Assembly (NCBI GenBank): GCA_919902665.1
Contig: CAKKRK010000020.1
Span: 1 to 64,000 of the forward strand
Source of the DNA: Nitrospiraceae bacterium
Lineage (GTDB): Bacteria; Nitrospirota; Nitrospiria; Nitrospirales; Nitrospiraceae
Length of the DNA stretch: 64,000 nt
Direction of reading: 5' to 3'
Numbering within the stretch: position 1 is the stretch's first letter; every line of letters begins with the position of its first letter. The translations under genes were made by a program, and so were the position numbers. The notes beneath the pieces are model-generated. The model saw nothing but the letters and a program-made list of their open reading frames with translations, was not told where the DNA came from and did no database searches. This document shows, piece after piece, positions 34,603-47,693 of the stretch.

Positions 34603-35553
34603 ATGGTCGGATCTAGCCAAAAGATGACCACGGTCCGCGAGTATCTCACCGAAGTGGCCGGATTTAATTCCCATGTGCTGATCACCGGAGAGACCGGAAC
34701 TGGGAAGGAACTGGCGGCGGCGATGGTGCATGAACGGAGTCCTCGTGCCACACACCCCTTTGTCTGTGTGAACTGCGCTGCAATTCCGGAAACGCTGTTC
34801 GAAAGCGAGGTGTTCGGGTATGAGAAAGGGGTGTTTACAGGGGCCAGTATGAAACGTGCCGGGCTGTTTGCCGAGGCGAGCGGCGGCACCCTGTTTCTCG
34901 ACGAGATTGGCGAGATGCCGCTGACCGCGCAATCCAAGATGCTTCGCGTGCTAGAAAGTCGAGAGATCCAACGCATTGGCTCTGCGCGATCACTCCCAAT
35001 CGATGTGCGCGTCGTGGCGGCAACGAATCAGCACCTCGAGGAACTGGTGGGACAGGGGAAATTCCGCAGCGACTTGTTCTATCGGCTCAATATCGCCAGG
35101 GTGCACCTGCCTCCACTTCGTGAACGAAAAGAAGATATTCCTGGGTTGATTGCTTACTTTCTCGGTATGTTAAACGCCCAGATGGGGAGACAGGTAGTTG
35201 GCTTGGAGCCAGAGGTGCACGATTGCCTGATGGAGTATGCCTGGCCGGGCAATGTGCGAGAACTCAAGAATCTGATGGAATCGACCCTACTCACCATCCG
35301 GTCTTCCCTGATCGGGTTCAAGGACCTTCCCGCGCACTATCAAACGACATTCTCACGGGTTCAGAGCAAGCCGTTCCAAGAACGAGAGCGGCTCGTGTCG
35401 GCACTTGCCGCGACCCATTGGAATATCAGCAAGACCGCGGAGCAACTCGACTGGGCCAGGATGACGGTGTACCGCAAGATCGCGCAATACGGGATCGCAC
35501 GCCCTTGTGCGGGAGCGATGTCACAGACGTCCAACCTTTTTGTGGAGATCTGA
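34603..35553 (+). CDS. sigma-54 activator without receiver domain
   Basis: About 316 residues: only a sigma-54 AAA+ domain and a Fis-type helix-turn-helix. ATG 34603 is chosen because GGAGG lies 6 bases upstream. Walker A is GETGTGKE (about 28-35), the sigma-54 contact loop reads GVFTGA instead of GAFTGA, Walker B is GGTLFLDEIGEM, and the sensor regions VRVVAATNQHLEEL and DLFYRLNIARVHLPPLRER are intact. WNISKTAEQLDWARMTVYRKI is the DNA-binding helix pair. It has no receiver or other sensory domain (PspF-like), so its activity must be set by its amount or by a partner. It is preceded by copy 3 of the TTTGTCCCCC element. Confidence 0.88.
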   Translation: MVGSSQKMTTVREYLTEVAGFNSHVLITGETGTGKELAAAMVHERSPRATHPFVCVNCAAIPETLFESEVFGYEKGVFTGASMKRAGLFAEASGGTLFLDEIGEMPLTAQSKMLRVLESREIQRIGSARSLPIDVRVVAATNQHLEELVGQGKFRSDLFYRLNIARVHLPPLRERKEDIPGLIAYFLGMLNAQMGRQVVGLEPEVHDCLMEYAWPGNVRELKNLMESTLLTIRSSLIGFKDLPAHYQTTFSRVQSKPFQERERLVSALAATHWNISKTAEQLDWARMTVYRKIAQYGIARPCAGAMSQTSNLFVEI

Positions 35554-35554
35554 T

Positions 35555-37438
35555 ATGAGCACTGCCGTACAGCGACTTTCGACCACGGCCCAACGAGAGC
35601 ACTTCGAGGCGCTTGCCCGTGAGGCTGAACGGGCGATGGCCGCGAGTCTTCCTTGGTATCGGGCGAAGATCGCCCTGCTGGCTGGGCTGGGGTATGTCGT
35701 AATTTTTGGAACGTTGGCGGTGTTGCTTCTGATCGGCGCACTCTGTGTCTGGGCGGTGCTCTCGGGGTATCTGTGGGTCTTGTTGGTGAAAGCCAAATTG
35801 CTCCTTGCCGTGCCGGCCATTGGATTCATTCTCATGCGTGCGTTATGGGTGCGGATTGATGCTCCCACAGGACGCCGCGTGACCAAACACGACTGTCCTC
35901 TCCTCTTTGAGCAACTTGCTGACTTGTGTCGTCGCATGAAGGCCCCACGGATTCATCGCGTCCTCATCGTGAATGATGCCAATGTGAGTATTGCCCAAAT
36001 CCCTCGTCTGGGAATCTTTGGATGGCACCGCAACTACTTGGTGGTGGGCCTTCCACTACTTTTGATGCTGTCACCGGAGCAGGTTCGTGCCGTGCTCGCC
36101 CATGAGATCGGTCATCTCTCCGGCAACCATAGTCGGTTCGGAGCCTGGATCTATCGTGTTCGCTTGTCCTGGTTTCGGATCGTGGCAGCGTTTCAGCAGG
36201 CGGATTCCTGGGCAAGCGGGCTCCTGGCTCGCTTCTTCTATTGGTATGCGCCCTACTTCAGTGCCGCGAGCTTTGCCCTGGCTCGAGCAAACGAATATGA
36301 GGCCGACGCCGCTGCGGCATCCCTGACCTCTCCACAGGCGGTCGGGTCTGCCCTGCTGGCAACTTCAACCGTGCCTCTGTTTGATGCCGAACGGTACTGG
36401 GAGCCTTTTTTTAAGCGGGCCGACCGCGAGCCACAGGTGCCACGTACACCCTGGTCAGACTATGCGAGCTATGCGGCACAACGCCGGATCGATCAATCTG
36501 ATGCTCGAGCGCTCGTCACCCAGTCTCTGAAACGGGAAACCAACTACGCCGATACTCACCCGTCCGTAGCTGACCGATTGAACGCATTGCACATCGGAGC
36601 AGAACTCGCCAGTACGTCACAGCCTCTGGCCGCTGAAGCGTGGCTGGCGCCGATCCTCCCCTCGCTTCTGACGGAATTCGATCATCAGTGGGTTCAGACC
36701 CATGAAGACATGTGGGAACAACGTTTCTCGCAGGCCCAGACGCTGAAGGCGACGTTGACGGAATTGGAGCACAAAGACCAGTCGAGCCTGTCACAGGATG
36801 AACGCTGGAATGTGATTGCGATGAAGGAGCACCTTGATCCCACGTATGATCCGTTGCCGGCCTATCGACAATATCACGCGGACTACCCAGAGGATCGCGC
36901 CGCCGATCTCGCAATCGGACGGCTGCTTCTTAGCAAACAAGACAGGGCAGGCCTTCAGTACCTCACCCGCGCGGCTGAAGAGTTTCGGTTGGTCGGTGCA
37001 GCCTGTCAGTTTGTTGGGTCTTACGCGATGCGGATAGGCGACAAATCGTTAGCAGAAGAGTGGACCCGACGCGCAGAGGGGCACTACGACACCCAGGTTG
37101 CCACTTATCGAGAACGGGCGACGCTTTCAGCCTCTGACACCCTCACTGCCACTCGTGTTCCTCCGAAGCAACCCGCTGATCTCCAAGATCAGCTCCGCAA
37201 GGTCGAGCAGGTCCACCATGCTTGGATCTGCGAGAAAGCGACAGCCGTCCCGACGGAACCCTGCTATGTGCTGGCGGTAGAACTTGAGGGGTTTACGGGC
37301 CCATCAGAGCAGCAGGACCTCATGCGTATACTGACGTCTCAAGTCCGGTATCCAGGCGAAACGTTCGTCATTCTCGCTACAGGTGATGGCAAGGCGATGG
37401 CTGAAAAGGTCAAGGGGATTGGGATGCAAGTCATCTGA
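35555..37438 (+). CDS. M48-family membrane metalloprotease
   Basis: A 627-residue protein starting 1 base after the activator stop, with TGGAG 6 bases before ATG 35555. Two long hydrophobic helices lie at about 39-64 and 68-97. The zinc site is HEIGH (183-187, in VLAHEIGHLSGNHSRFG), with the third ligand in ANEYEADAAAA (about 245-254). The C-terminal half (about 380-627) is helical with TPR-like features. M48 enzymes (HtpX/Oma1 group) degrade damaged membrane proteins. Co-transcription with a PspF-like activator suggests an envelope-stress role. Confidence 0.85.
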   Translation: MSTAVQRLSTTAQREHFEALAREAERAMAASLPWYRAKIALLAGLGYVVIFGTLAVLLLIGALCVWAVLSGYLWVLLVKAKLLLAVPAIGFILMRALWVRIDAPTGRRVTKHDCPLLFEQLADLCRRMKAPRIHRVLIVNDANVSIAQIPRLGIFGWHRNYLVVGLPLLLMLSPEQVRAVLAHEIGHLSGNHSRFGAWIYRVRLSWFRIVAAFQQADSWASGLLARFFYWYAPYFSAASFALARANEYEADAAAASLTSPQAVGSALLATSTVPLFDAERYWEPFFKRADREPQVPRTPWSDYASYAAQRRIDQSDARALVTQSLKRETNYADTHPSVADRLNALHIGAELASTSQPLAAEAWLAPILPSLLTEFDHQWVQTHEDMWEQRFSQAQTLKATLTELEHKDQSSLSQDERWNVIAMKEHLDPTYDPLPAYRQYHADYPEDRAADLAIGRLLLSKQDRAGLQYLTRAAEEFRLVGAACQFVGSYAMRIGDKSLAEEWTRRAEGHYDTQVATYRERATLSASDTLTATRVPPKQPADLQDQLRKVEQVHHAWICEKATAVPTEPCYVLAVELEGFTGPSEQQDLMRILTSQVRYPGETFVILATGDGKAMAEKVKGIGMQVI

Positions 37439-37514
37439 GTCCGATGCTTCATTCATGCCTTTGTGCCTCGGTTCCATGAATAGATCCAATTGTCTCAGAG
37501 AGAGGAAGACGGGA

Positions 37515-38519
37515 CTATTGCACCAGCCGATTAAGGCGGTCCCAGCGCGGAACTTTTGTGCCGGGATCTATCGACCAATAGATGAACATCGCTTTTCCTA
37601 GCACCAGCTCTTTGCTCACCGATCCCCAGAAACGGCTATCCAGACTGCTATCCCGGTTATCACCCATGACAAAATACGTGTTGGGGGGAACGACCACAGG
37701 GGCAAGATTGTCGCGAGGAACTTGAGGCAGGGTGATGACATTGGGATCAATGTGTTGAATGTACGATTCTATGCATCGTTCGCCGTTCACGTAAAGCTGT
37801 TTGTCACGAACTTCGATGCGATCTTGGGGCAGGCCGACCACTCGTTGAATGAAGATCTTCGTTTCATCTTTTGGATAGCGGAAGGCGATGATATCGCCTC
37901 GTTTCGGCTCCGCCTGCTGATAGGTCGTTTTCTTGATTGAGAAATGATCACCAGGTAGGAGCGTGGGGCTCATACCTGGGTTTGGGACTCTGAATGAACG
38001 CCAATGGGTTTGCACGGCATCTCGTAAGTGGTCCGCGATAAATTTATGCCGGAGTGCTTGGAGGACGGGTGAGGCATGGGTGCCCACATGGTCATAGTCT
38101 GCCGTGAGTGTCTGCGCTTCGGTAGAAGTCAACGAGGCTGCATACAATCGTACGAGTTGCGCCTTCATGAGTTTGGCCGTGCTCTCATCATTCAGCATGA
38201 TTTGGAGGGAGCGCACAAACGATTGTCGTAGGCTCTCCTTTTCAGACGAGGTTACCGGGCCTGCGAAGTCTGGTTTTTGTTCGAGGAGTTGAATAAACTC
38301 AGCCGCATCAACCTCGGACATCGTCGTGATGAGACGATTCGAGGACAATTCCAAGTCGGCCAGTCTCTGAAACACATCACCTGAGTCAGATACGTGAGAA
38401 GTGGCGGCTGTCGCCGCGGTGCTGAGTTCCGTCCACTGTCCAAGGGTGATCAGCAGGAGACACATCATCAGAGATTTGGAACTTCGAGCGTGGCTGAACA
38501 AGTGACGAAGATCATTCAC
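37515..38519 (-). CDS. signal-peptidase-I-like protein with DUF2059-like N-terminus and lost catalytic Lys
   Basis: A 334-residue protein. GTG 38519 has AAGGAGGTG 5-6 bases upstream, better than any earlier start. An N-terminal hydrophobic signal (MMCLLLITLGQW) is followed by a helical region (about 50-150, EVDAAEFIQLLEQKPDF, LMKAQLVRLYAASLTSTEAQTL) that resembles DUF2059. Then comes a peptidase S26 domain: NPGMSPTLLPGDHFSI with Ser near 184, RGDIIAFRYP, and the box E element GDNRDSSLDSRFWG. The box normally reading (I/V)KRxxGLPGD is IQRVVGLPQD, so the general-base Lys is Gln. It may be inactive or use another base. The usual N-terminal transmembrane hairpin is absent. Confidence 0.8.
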   Translation of the reverse strand: MNDLRHLFSHARSSKSLMMCLLLITLGQWTELSTAATAATSHVSDSGDVFQRLADLELSSNRLITTMSEVDAAEFIQLLEQKPDFAGPVTSSEKESLRQSFVRSLQIMLNDESTAKLMKAQLVRLYAASLTSTEAQTLTADYDHVGTHASPVLQALRHKFIADHLRDAVQTHWRSFRVPNPGMSPTLLPGDHFSIKKTTYQQAEPKRGDIIAFRYPKDETKIFIQRVVGLPQDRIEVRDKQLYVNGERCIESYIQHIDPNVITLPQVPRDNLAPVVVPPNTYFVMGDNRDSSLDSRFWGSVSKELVLGKAMFIYWSIDPGTKVPRWDRLNRLVQ

Positions 38520-39331
38520 AGAGCACCTCCTTGCCTGCCACCAGCATACTGCGGCGAGCCCTTCTTGAGAAGAAAATGACCGAATCACAAGCAGCAGCAG
38601 AGAGCGGCGGTAGGTGCGAGCAGGTGTCAACCATCTATTGGATGGATGCTGGACGCATCAGCGACAATGGAACAACCGGTGCCACAGGTCGCCACAAGAC
38701 ACTCCCAGATCTCCCAAAGGCTCGCTTAGAACAATGCGCCAGCCCTGGGCGCTCGCTCCCTTGATCGTCTGGCCACGGCAGTAGCATGATCACCCCTCAT
38801 TCTTCATCACTCTCATGAATATCCGTGCAGACACTGTTCCGCTCGTTCACATAAGCCTGTGGTTCCCTGCACCCATCGTACGCCATGTCGAAAAATGACG
38901 GGCGGTATATATCAGGGCTGAGGTTTCGAAGGACTTCTCGCGCAAAGCATTTATGAATGCTGAAAGATCTGAAAAACCAACATGAGCGCTGTCACATTGA
39001 CCTATGTATGTGACAGTGCTGTGACACTCATCGTGACAGCAGTGAATGACAGTCACGAGTTCCCGTATAGCCAGCATTTCCGTCATTTCACGAACGATAC
39101 ACCTACACTCTCATTCTTTGAACCACTGGATCTGTCACTTTCTCCTGTCACATCGCGTTCTCACCTCTATTTCTCACTCAGCATGTAGCTGGCAACGAAA
39201 GCGCTGTTCTTTCAGGCGGTTTCGTCGCCAGAACACGTTTCAAGAAGTTGGGCACGCATTCTGCTTTATGCACTGCCGTGAGAGCGCAACCTAGTCCTGA
39301 ATCAACGGTTCGTGGAATGGGATGAGGATTT
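38520..39331. other. long intergenic region between divergent genes
   Basis: About 810 bp with no credible gene. The only structure I see is the cluster of CTGTCAC/GTGACAG elements at 38989-39154, listed separately. The stretch is somewhat AT-richer than flanking genes. Confidence 0.4.
38989..39154. promoter_or_regulatory. cluster of CTGTCACAT/GTGACAG operator-like repeats
   Basis: CTGTCACAT (38989-38997) and ATGTGACAG (39008-39016) form a perfect 9-bp inverted repeat with a 10-bp spacer. CTGTGACAC (39019), CGTGACAGC (39032), ATGACAGTCAC (39046), CTGTCAC (39133) and a second exact CTGTCACAT (39146-39154) follow. Such a density of one heptamer suggests cooperative repressor binding upstream of the gene set starting at 39332. 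The binding protein is unknown. Confidence 0.5.
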
Positions 39332-41194: not shown

Positions 41195-42556
41195 GTGATA
41201 AGAAATTCTAAGGTTAAATCCAGCGCTGGGCCTAATTCAAAACTACAGGGTGGATCAGAAGGCCGAGGGGGCATCCCCCAAGGCTTAACTGGAAGGTATG
41301 TGATTACCTTTAAGGACGGTGCCACAGAGGCAGGCATTAAGTTACTTTCTCGATCGGCAGGACTACACGTGACAGCTCTAGGATTTAGTAGGGAAGGAAT
41401 GGATGTGACAGCCCTCACTAAGGGTGACGTTGTGTTTCCAAAACTAGGCATAGCGGTGGTATCTGGACAACCTGACCAGATCCAGTTAGTCGGCGTAGAG
41501 AGTGCCGATCCGGTACTGTCGATAGAAGCAGAACGAATCGTGTATGCAACGAATTACCCTCCGATATTGAATCCAGCGTATGAAGCAGAACGGCGTGTGG
41601 GACCAGAATATTTGCAGGGGTATCGCGATGCCGTCAATCATCTGGCCAATAGTTTCTTGGCTTCGGACGAGCACGGCGTTGCTGAAAGACGTGGTGCGGC
41701 CATAGACACACGACGGGAAACGTGGGGTTTGTATGCGACGCAGGTCTTCAAATCTTCCTACGGTGGACGAGGAATTAAGATGGCCGTGTTGGACACGGGA
41801 CTGGATTTGGACCACCCTGATTTTGCAGGTCGTCAGATTCACGCGGAATCATTTATTAGCGGAGAGACAGCCGATGACGGCAACGGTCACGGTACTCACA
41901 CCATTGGAACATCATGTGGGGCTAAGAAACCACATGCCGGCCCTCGGTATGGCGTGGCTTACGAAGCAGAGATTTACGCAGGAAAAGTCTTGAGCAATGG
42001 GGGAAGTGGCGACGATTCGGGTATTTTGGCCGGTATAGAGTGGGCTCTATCAAACAGGTGCCAGATAATTTCCATGTCACTGGGAGCTCCTGCAAATGTG
42101 GGTGATTCTTATTCGCAGGCCTATGAGCAAGCTGCACGGCGGGCATTGGCGGCTGGAACTCTCATCGTAGCAGCAGCAGGTAATGAAAGCCAGCGACCTG
42201 AACGTGTCGAACCGGTTGGTCATCCAGCCAATTGCCCTTCAATTATGGCAGTAGCGGCCCTTGATAGAACAAATAATATTGCGTACTTCTCGTGTGGGGG
42301 GCTGGCTTCGGATGGCGGGCAGGTCGATATAGCGGGGCCTGGAGTAGCAGTATATAGTAGTTGGCCATTATCTCGGCAGTACAAAGTTGAAAACGGCACG
42401 AGCATGGCAACACCGCATGTAGCAGGAGTTGCTGCGCTGTATGCCGAAGCACAGCGATTACGCGGATCTGATCTCTGGAATGCGCTCACCAGAACAGCGA
42501 AGAGATTGAGATTGTCTTCGCAGGACGTGGGTGCGGGCTTGGTACAAGCACCCTAA
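41195..42556 (+). CDS. subtilisin-family (S8) serine protease with own pro-region, no signal peptide
   Basis: A 453-residue protein. The start is GTG 41195, 5 bases after GGAGG. Residues about 30-112 (GLTGRYVITFKDGATEAGIKL and the strands to SIEAERIVYA) look like a divergent I9-type pro-domain. The catalytic triad is complete: Asp in MAVLDTGLDLDHPD (about 198), His in GNGHGTHTIGT (about 231), Ser in ENGTSMATPHVAG (about 402), with AAAGNE as the oxyanion site. No signal peptide is visible, so it may act in the cytosol or use an unusual route. It belongs to the 39332-42883 gene set and is followed by a stand-alone inhibitor-like protein. Confidence 0.9.
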   Translation: MIRNSKVKSSAGPNSKLQGGSEGRGGIPQGLTGRYVITFKDGATEAGIKLLSRSAGLHVTALGFSREGMDVTALTKGDVVFPKLGIAVVSGQPDQIQLVGVESADPVLSIEAERIVYATNYPPILNPAYEAERRVGPEYLQGYRDAVNHLANSFLASDEHGVAERRGAAIDTRRETWGLYATQVFKSSYGGRGIKMAVLDTGLDLDHPDFAGRQIHAESFISGETADDGNGHGTHTIGTSCGAKKPHAGPRYGVAYEAEIYAGKVLSNGGSGDDSGILAGIEWALSNRCQIISMSLGAPANVGDSYSQAYEQAARRALAAGTLIVAAAGNESQRPERVEPVGHPANCPSIMAVAALDRTNNIAYFSCGGLASDGGQVDIAGPGVAVYSSWPLSRQYKVENGTSMATPHVAGVAALYAEAQRLRGSDLWNALTRTAKRLRLSSQDVGAGLVQAP

Positions 42557-46412: not shown

Positions 46413-47693
46413 ATGGCTTGTGTGCGAAAACGGCGCGGCAAATATGTGGTGGACTGGCGCGATGGAGCGGGAGTGCGCCGCTGGAAGACCTTCGACAAGA
46501 AGACCGATGCGGATGCGCACCGTGATAAGGTCGGACCTGAAGCCCGGCAACGTTTGACATCGACTGTTCCCGCCAGCATCACGTTGAAGGACTATGCCGA
46601 GCACTGGAAACAATTGATCGGCCATAGTCTGAAGTCGCGGACCATGGCGAGATACAGTGAAATTCTCATGCAACATATCCTCCCGCGCTTTGAGAAGGTC
46701 GCAGTTCAAAAGCTGGAGCGAGGACCTATTAAGCTCTTACTCACTGACAAGCTCAACGAGGGACTTCAGAAGCGTACCGTTCGCAATATCCATGCTGTGT
46801 TGAGAACCATGCTGAATGCTGCGATTGACGATGGTCTTCTCAGCTCCAATCCAGCGGCAAAATTAGGCCGAACGCTCAAGTTAACCACATCCAAGGCGAC
46901 GAGGCAGGAAGAAATCAAAGCCTTCACCAAGGAGCAGCGGCACGTGTTCCTGGCCACGGCCTTGAAAGACACGCCCCGCTACTATCCGCTGTTCTTTGTC
47001 CTGGCCGGTACAGGTATGAGATTAGGGGAAGCCTTAGCGCTGCAAGTCGACGATGTGGATCTTCAGGCCAAGACGATCCGCATTGCCCGTGCTTTTTCAG
47101 AAGATGGAGCGCTTGATACGCCCAAGTCTGGCCATGGACGCTCGGTAGATATCTCGAACTCTCTCACCGAGATGCTGGGATCTCATATCCGGGCACGCAA
47201 GCAAGACACGCTCAAATATGGATGGACTGATCGTCCTTCGTGGTTATTCGTGAGCAAGGTGGGTACGCCACTCGATGCGGCGAATGTGCGGAAGGGCATG
47301 ACCCATGCGTTGAAGGCAGCGAAGTTGCCGACACATTTCACCCCCCATTGTTTGCGCCATACGTACGCCTCCATTCTCCTGGCTGATAGCGTCAGCCCTG
47401 TTTACGTACAGGAACAACTTGGCCACGCCACGATTGAATTGACTGTCTCCACCTATGGTCGATGGCTGAAGAAGAAAGCCCCTGGTGCGCTGGATCGTCT
47501 CGACGAAATACCGTCTCAATCAGAGCGGGCGGTAGCAAGTGGTAGCAAAGTGGTAGCAGACGGGGCCTACGCACACAATCCCCCGACCGGAGAGGTGGTG
47601 CAACTGCCTGAAATTCCTTGGGGAGGTGTGGAGCTGGCGAGAGGAATCGAACCTCCAACCTGCGGTTTACAAAACCGCTGCTCTGCCGATTGA
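46413..47693 (+). CDS. int: tyrosine recombinase / site-specific integrase
   Basis: A 426-residue phage-type integrase. The N-terminus has the arm-binding AP2-like strands (KRRGKYVVDWRDGAGVRRWKTF) and a SAM-like core domain (SRTMARYSEILMQHILPRF). The catalytic residues are visible: Arg in GTGMRLGEAL, His and Arg in HCLRHTYASI, GH in EQLGHATIE and Tyr in TVSTYGRW. The last 22 codons run antisense into a tRNA-Thr gene, the usual configuration when the element uses that tRNA 3' end as its attachment site. Confidence 0.93.
   Translation: MACVRKRRGKYVVDWRDGAGVRRWKTFDKKTDADAHRDKVGPEARQRLTSTVPASITLKDYAEHWKQLIGHSLKSRTMARYSEILMQHILPRFEKVAVQKLERGPIKLLLTDKLNEGLQKRTVRNIHAVLRTMLNAAIDDGLLSSNPAAKLGRTLKLTTSKATRQEEIKAFTKEQRHVFLATALKDTPRYYPLFFVLAGTGMRLGEALALQVDDVDLQAKTIRIARAFSEDGALDTPKSGHGRSVDISNSLTEMLGSHIRARKQDTLKYGWTDRPSWLFVSKVGTPLDAANVRKGMTHALKAAKLPTHFTPHCLRHTYASILLADSVSPVYVQEQLGHATIELTVSTYGRWLKKKAPGALDRLDEIPSQSERAVASGSKVVADGAYAHNPPTGEVVQLPEIPWGGVELARGIEPPTCGLQNRCSAD

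What the first reader, a model, noticed from the sequence alone, without database searches (positions are those of the whole stretch)
37515..38519. Signal-peptidase-like protein with DUF2059-like domain and Lys-to-Gln active site
The S26 boxes are well kept (PGMSPTLL, GDNRDSSLDSR), but the general-base Lys in the (K)RVVGLP box is Gln, and a helical DUF2059-like domain replaces the membrane anchor. It may be a dead receptor-like enzyme, a different hydrolase, or use Lys four positions upstream (TKIFIQR).
Basis: partly seen in the sequence, partly recalled or inferred. Interest (0 to 1): 0.62.

Follow-up and report, generated by a model that had tools for sequence, protein, structure and literature searches.

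The report
Secreted signal-peptidase look-alike lacking catalytic residues
This gene of an ammonia-oxidising Nitrospira-like bacterium makes an exported protein with the shape of signal peptidase, the enzyme that trims exported proteins, but both catalytic residues are gone; about half of its genus keeps a related copy under selection, so the fold has probably been reused to bind peptides rather than cut them.

Summary
The ORF at 37515-38519 (minus) is a real S26 signal-peptidase homologue (Pfam 140 bits). The protein belongs to a distinct family, export signal + helical domain + S26, found in 43 of 79 genomes of its genus and 4 of 29 of a sister genus, and in no other of 169 genera sampled in the phylum. 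None of 45 aligned members has the Ser+Lys dyad: Ala/His 28, Ser/His 6, Ala/Lys 4, Thr/His 3, Ala/Gln 2, Ser/Leu 1, Gly/Gln 1 (window). On the tree Ser was lost first and Lys second. Structural boxes and the hydrophobic cleft are kept, and dN/dS is about 0.2. All 40 main-clade members carry a lipobox; the window and sister-genus copies do not. The Lys four residues upstream is also present in active LepB, so it is no migrated base. DUF2059 is not supported by HMMER. Best reading: an exported pseudo-signal-peptidase that binds peptides without cutting, convergent with Streptococcus SipA. The binding function is inferred. New variant of a known kind.

The parts
37515..38519 (-). Whole gene: exported S26 pseudo-signal-peptidase, 334 aa, GTG start
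38388..38519 (-). N-terminal export signal (MNDLRHLFSHARSSKSLMMCLLLITLGQWTELSTAATA...); no lipobox Cys, unlike 40/40 main-clade relatives. Called by eye; no signal-peptide predictor was run
37998..38378 (-). Lineage-restricted helical domain (about 128 aa), found in 2 of 169 genera of the phylum; not DUF2059 by HMMER
37575..38006 (-). S26 (signal peptidase I) domain
37965..37991 (-). Box B, around NPGMSPTLL: nucleophile Ser90 equivalent is Gly, oxyanion Ser88 equivalent is Asn
37830..37856 (-). Box D, around FIQRVVGLP: general-base Lys145 equivalent is Gln (CAA)
37626..37670 (-). Box E, around VMGDNRDSSLDSRFW: fully kept
37442..38988 (.). Interval holding the gene that is only about 270 bp in syntenic relative G018 (gene absent there)

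Best explanation
It is an exported pseudoenzyme derived from a duplicated signal peptidase I (LepB). The LepB membrane anchor has been replaced by a signal sequence and a helical domain. The S26 fold and hydrophobic peptide cleft are kept, but both catalytic residues are lost (Ser90 equivalent is Gly, Lys145 equivalent is Gln). Most likely mechanism: the S26 cleft binds an extended peptide or the N-terminal end of an exported protein in the periplasm without cutting it. The helical domain would supply partner or localisation specificity. The protein would thus act as a chaperone, adaptor or sensor, as proposed for Streptococcus SipA. Shown: fold, loss of both residues, family-wide absence of Ser+Lys, purifying selection in relatives. 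Inferred: export, peptide binding, role of the helical domain.
For: S26 by Pfam, NCBIfam and fold (SipA 4n31 TMt 0.74, Z 14.6; E. coli LepB Z about 14). Both dyad positions changed. None of 45 family members has Ser+Lys, while 13/13 LepB rows do. Family monophyletic 100/99; parsimony gives one Ser loss at the base (with one later regain) and one Lys loss. Cleft positions F84, I86, M91, L95, Y143 and I144 stay hydrophobic (I86 is Thr in 4 members); G272-D273-N274-R275, S278, D280, S281, R282 are invariant. dN/dS median 0.21 over 249 pairs, both domains constrained. The window copy keeps 45 of 52 columns invariant in the rest. Canonical LepB is present in the same genome. SipA precedent: dyad Asp/Gly, no peptidase activity, cleft conserved, replaced residues dispensable (PMC4049620).
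Against: No ligand, partner or phenotype is known. The window copy is a singleton among sampled genomes on a long branch (0.53), so its own selection cannot be measured. Seven relatives have Ser, six of them with His, which could be catalytic. In SipA a cleft-blocking mutation did not abolish pilus assembly, so cleft binding may not be the function even there. The predicted model is moderate overall (mean pLDDT 61.8), though the S26 core reaches about 70-88.
Confidence: 0.68

Rival explanations
1. The window copy itself is a decaying or idle paralogue: the main copy on contig C145 (Ala/His, lipoprotein) does the family's job, and the Gly/Gln copy is a relic or a recent transfer under relaxed selection.
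For: Long branch 0.53; no orthologue in 79 genus genomes; the gene is missing from the same syntenic spot in G018; lipobox lost or never gained; 7 of 52 otherwise invariant columns changed.
Against: Intact 334-codon frame with a ribosome-binding site; 45 of 52 family-invariant columns kept despite only 44% overall identity; S26 structural boxes C and E kept.
Confidence: 0.17
2. It is a still-active hydrolase using a non-canonical residue set (the Ser two positions after the lost nucleophile in GMSPT, the retained Ser278 equivalent, or the upstream Lys).
For: A Ser lies near the lost nucleophile in the window copy; S278 and D280 equivalents are retained.
Against: The GMS Ser is unique to this copy (V, E, L, A or I in relatives); the upstream Lys also exists in active LepB beside its catalytic Lys and is not conserved in the family; S278, D280 and R282 are ordinary LepB structural residues.
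Confidence: 0.06
3. It regulates LepB: a decoy that competes for signal peptides or cleaved products, or that binds LepB and tunes secretion.
For: Same fold, cleft positions conserved, co-occurs with active LepB.
Against: Most relatives are lipoproteins with Ser, Gly or Ala after the Cys, which by the E. coli rule would go to the outer membrane, away from the translocon (rule from general knowledge). No gene linkage with lepB or sec genes.
Confidence: 0.09

Closest known systems
SipA of Streptococcus pyogenes (PDB 4n31, 4k8w; PMC4049620)
   Same: S26 fold, both catalytic residues replaced (Asp/Gly there, Gly/Gln here), cleft kept; among the best fold matches.
   Different: SipA has a transmembrane anchor, sits in a pilus gene cluster and is Gram-positive; here there is a signal or lipobox plus a helical domain, no pilus or sortase neighbours, and a Gram-negative lineage. 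The precise residues differ, so the loss is convergent.
SpsA of Staphylococcus aureus (inactive SPase I paralogue; PMC12445088)
   Same: Inactive paralogue beside an active SPase I, two conserved catalytic residues missing.
   Different: No added domain is described there; the review read here gives SpsA no function and calls it dispensable.
LepB / bacterial signal peptidase I (MEROPS S26A), including this genome's own LepB on contig C58
   Same: Pfam PF10502, boxes C and E, fold, 41% identity to own LepB over the domain.
   Different: No Ser nucleophile, no Lys base, no LepB-type membrane anchor.
Ser-His signal peptidases (Bacillus SipW, eukaryotic SPC; from general knowledge)
   Same: His replaces the Lys base in 37 of 45 family members, and six of these have Ser.
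   Different: The window copy has neither Ser nor His; most His-bearing relatives have Ala or Thr instead of Ser.

Membership tests
Signal peptidase I (S26A) as an active enzyme | S26 fold and Pfam/NCBIfam match | tested here: met
   PF10502 140.5 bits, TIGR02227 145.7 bits; fold match Z 14-15.6
Signal peptidase I (S26A) as an active enzyme | Ser nucleophile (E. coli Ser90) in box B | tested here: not met
   Gly in the window copy; Ala, Thr or Ser in relatives
Signal peptidase I (S26A) as an active enzyme | Lys general base (E. coli Lys145) in box D | tested here: not met
   Gln (CAA) in the window copy
Signal peptidase I (S26A) as an active enzyme | N-terminal transmembrane anchor directly before the catalytic domain | tested here: not met
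   A signal-like segment then about 128 aa of helical domain precede S26; topology not measured
SipA-type pseudo-signal-peptidase (pilus assembly) | S26 fold without Ser-Lys dyad, cleft kept | tested here: met
   PMC4049620
SipA-type pseudo-signal-peptidase (pilus assembly) | Encoded in a pilin/sortase gene cluster | tested here: not met
   Neighbours: sigma-54 activator, M48 and S8 peptidases, P450; main copies beside HflX GTPase, dienelactone hydrolase, FAD reductase, SpoIIE/STAS regulators
DUF2059 (PF09832) | Match of the N-terminal domain over the Pfam cut-off | tested here: not met
   No HMMER match in any of 21 members; own-genome search finds another protein only
DUF2059 (PF09832) | Profile-profile or fold similarity | tested here: inconclusive
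   hhalign local P 0.017, probability 2.7; N-domain model too poor to search
Ser-His signal peptidase (SipW/SPC type) | Ser nucleophile plus His base | tested here: not met
   Window copy Gly/Gln; only 6 of 45 relatives have Ser+His

The most novel reading that the evidence does not exclude
A Nitrospira-specific secreted pseudo-protease family in which one subclade regained the nucleophile Ser next to an already substituted His, re-evolving a Ser-His peptidase on a lipoprotein scaffold, while the window copy diverged further as a soluble peptide receptor.
Probability: 0.12. Interest if true: 0.75.

Novelty: new variant of a known kind. Interest (0 to 1): 0.48.

Why it matters
The inactive signal peptidases I found described (SipA, SpsA) are Gram-positive. 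This is a conserved Gram-negative family with a different architecture (signal or lipobox + helical domain + S26), a readable order of loss (nucleophile first, base second) and an apparent regain of Ser in one subclade. It is a natural series for testing what the S26 cleft does without catalysis. It also warns annotators: profile models score this protein as 'signal peptidase I' although it cannot use the known mechanism.

Tried and rejected
Lys four residues upstream as a replacement base: rejected, it is present in all 12 compared LepB sequences too. Single sequencing error: rejected, two sites are affected and relatives also lack the dyad. DUF2059 membership: not supported. A solved-structure relative of the N-domain by sequence: none significant. 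N-domain modelled alone: pLDDT 43, not usable, so no fold search was made and no claim of a new fold is made. Genome-contig scan with the window protein: returned S26 proteins of other phyla (those aligned are ordinary signal peptidases), no family member. Ancestral reconstruction was not available on the machine, so I relied on the label-change counts of the tree tool. Repeats flanking the gene that would show a mobile unit: no direct repeats found. Literature on such a family in Nitrospira: nothing relevant found.

Full report
What is there. The minus-strand ORF 37515-38519 (334 aa, GTG start preceded by AAGGAGG) matches Peptidase_S26 (PF10502, 140.5 bits, residues 172-315) and TIGR02227. 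The window lies in a 3.56 Mb genome (contig C20) that carries an amoA C-terminal fragment (PF02461) followed by what I read as an amoB-like start. I therefore infer a complete-ammonia-oxidising Nitrospira-like organism; the genus name is my inference, since genomes here are unnamed. The genome has four S26 proteins: a canonical LepB (IPSGSMIPTL, FIKRIVGLPGD), a TraF-like protein, the window protein, and a 44%-identical full-length paralogue on contig C145.

The active site. Aligned to LepB, the window protein has Gly at the nucleophile Ser90 (E. coli numbering) and Gln at the general base Lys145. The oxyanion Ser88 is Asn. The Lys proposed as a substitute, four residues upstream, is Lys in all 12 compared LepB sequences, which have their true catalytic Lys as well, and is variable (K/T/Q) in the family; it is not a migrated base.

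The family. Searches of the genus found a full-length relative in 41 of 79 genomes, plus two with a split or broken copy. A sister genus has it in 4 of 29 genomes. A profile of the N-terminal domain hits only these two of 169 genera sampled in the phylum. Of 45 aligned members the two catalytic positions read A/H 28, S/H 6, A/K 4, T/H 3, A/Q 2, S/L 1, G/Q 1 (window); all 13 LepB rows read S/K. The family is monophyletic (100/99). The sister genus (A/K) branches first, then the window protein (95/83), then the main clade. The fewest-change count needs two changes for Ser (one loss at the base of the family and one regain in the S/H subclade) and one for Lys (loss after the sister genus split off). 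So Ser was lost first and Lys second. The S/H subclade is nested inside A/H; independent retention with several losses is possible but less parsimonious.

Selection and structure. Pairwise dN/dS within the family has a median of 0.21 over 249 pairs, similar in both domains. The family keeps boxes C and E and mostly hydrophobic residues at the cleft positions F84, I86, M91, L95, Y143 and I144 (I86 is Thr in four members). The window copy keeps 45 of 52 columns invariant in all others. The AlphaFold model is moderate (mean pLDDT 61.8; S26 core about 70-88). Its best matches are SpsB, SipA and E. coli LepB. The N-terminal domain is predicted helical, but modelled alone it is unreliable.

Localisation. 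All 40 main-clade members carry a lipobox by a PROSITE-type pattern (typically GLWAGC-S); the window and sister-genus proteins do not, and look like plain signal-sequence proteins. This is by pattern and eye; no predictor was run.

Neighbourhood. The main-clade gene has conserved neighbours: HflX-type GTPase, dienelactone hydrolase, a geranylgeranyl-reductase-like FAD protein, and downstream an MHYT-PAS-SpoIIE-HATPase-STAS regulator and a STAS protein. The window copy sits elsewhere, convergent with a sigma-54 activator and an M48 peptidase. In relative G018 the same locus is conserved (87% identity over 2.8 kb on one side, 73% on the other) but the 1.55 kb interval with the gene is about 270 bp, so the gene is present or absent as a unit. 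Direction (gain or loss) is not settled.

How it works. Shown: an S26 fold without Ser and Lys, in a family where no member has both, under purifying selection in relatives. Inferred: it is exported and binds peptides without cutting. The best precedent is SipA, which has Asp/Gly at the dyad, no peptidase activity and a conserved cleft, and whose substituted dyad residues are dispensable for pilus assembly (PMC4049620); SpsA of S. aureus is another inactive paralogue (PMC12445088). A caution from SipA is that a cleft-blocking mutation did not abolish function. The window copy may also be an idle paralogue (17%), since it is a singleton on a long branch. Working like SipA is plausible; membership in SipA's system is rejected (no pilus genes, no transmembrane anchor of that type). 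DUF2059 is not supported by sequence search, with only a weak profile-profile match.

Verdict. New variant of a known kind, interest 0.48.

Noticed in passing
L082 (G091:C2:217983-218459): A second, independent S26-like protein (464 aa, multi-spanning N-terminus) with Ala at the Ser site (SSAMDPTL), Arg at the Lys site (YFRRVVGLPG) and ADN in place of GDN: another dead signal-peptidase relative in the genus.
   Followed up: partly
L014, L015, L022, L046, L075, L076: Family subclade with Ser+His at the two catalytic positions, nested in Ala/His relatives; candidate regain of an active site. L070 in the same subclade has Ser+Leu.
   Followed up: partly
window 38985-39050: Repeated TGTGACA/TGTCACA motifs with an inverted repeat, conserved at the same place in G018; possible operator of the next gene.
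   Followed up: no
window 41195-42556 and 35507-37438: An S8 subtilase and an M48 peptidase with a long C-terminal extension lie within 4 kb of the S26-like gene; the M48 protein has an 88% identical orthologue only in G018 among 79 genomes.
   Followed up: partly
window 46413-47693: Phage-type integrase next to response-regulator/sigma-54 activator genes; possible mobile element boundary.
   Followed up: no
G012:C13:37907-38014: Only a short LepB fragment was found in an otherwise 99% complete genome (G012); probably an assembly edge, but a genome without intact canonical LepB would be notable.
   Followed up: no
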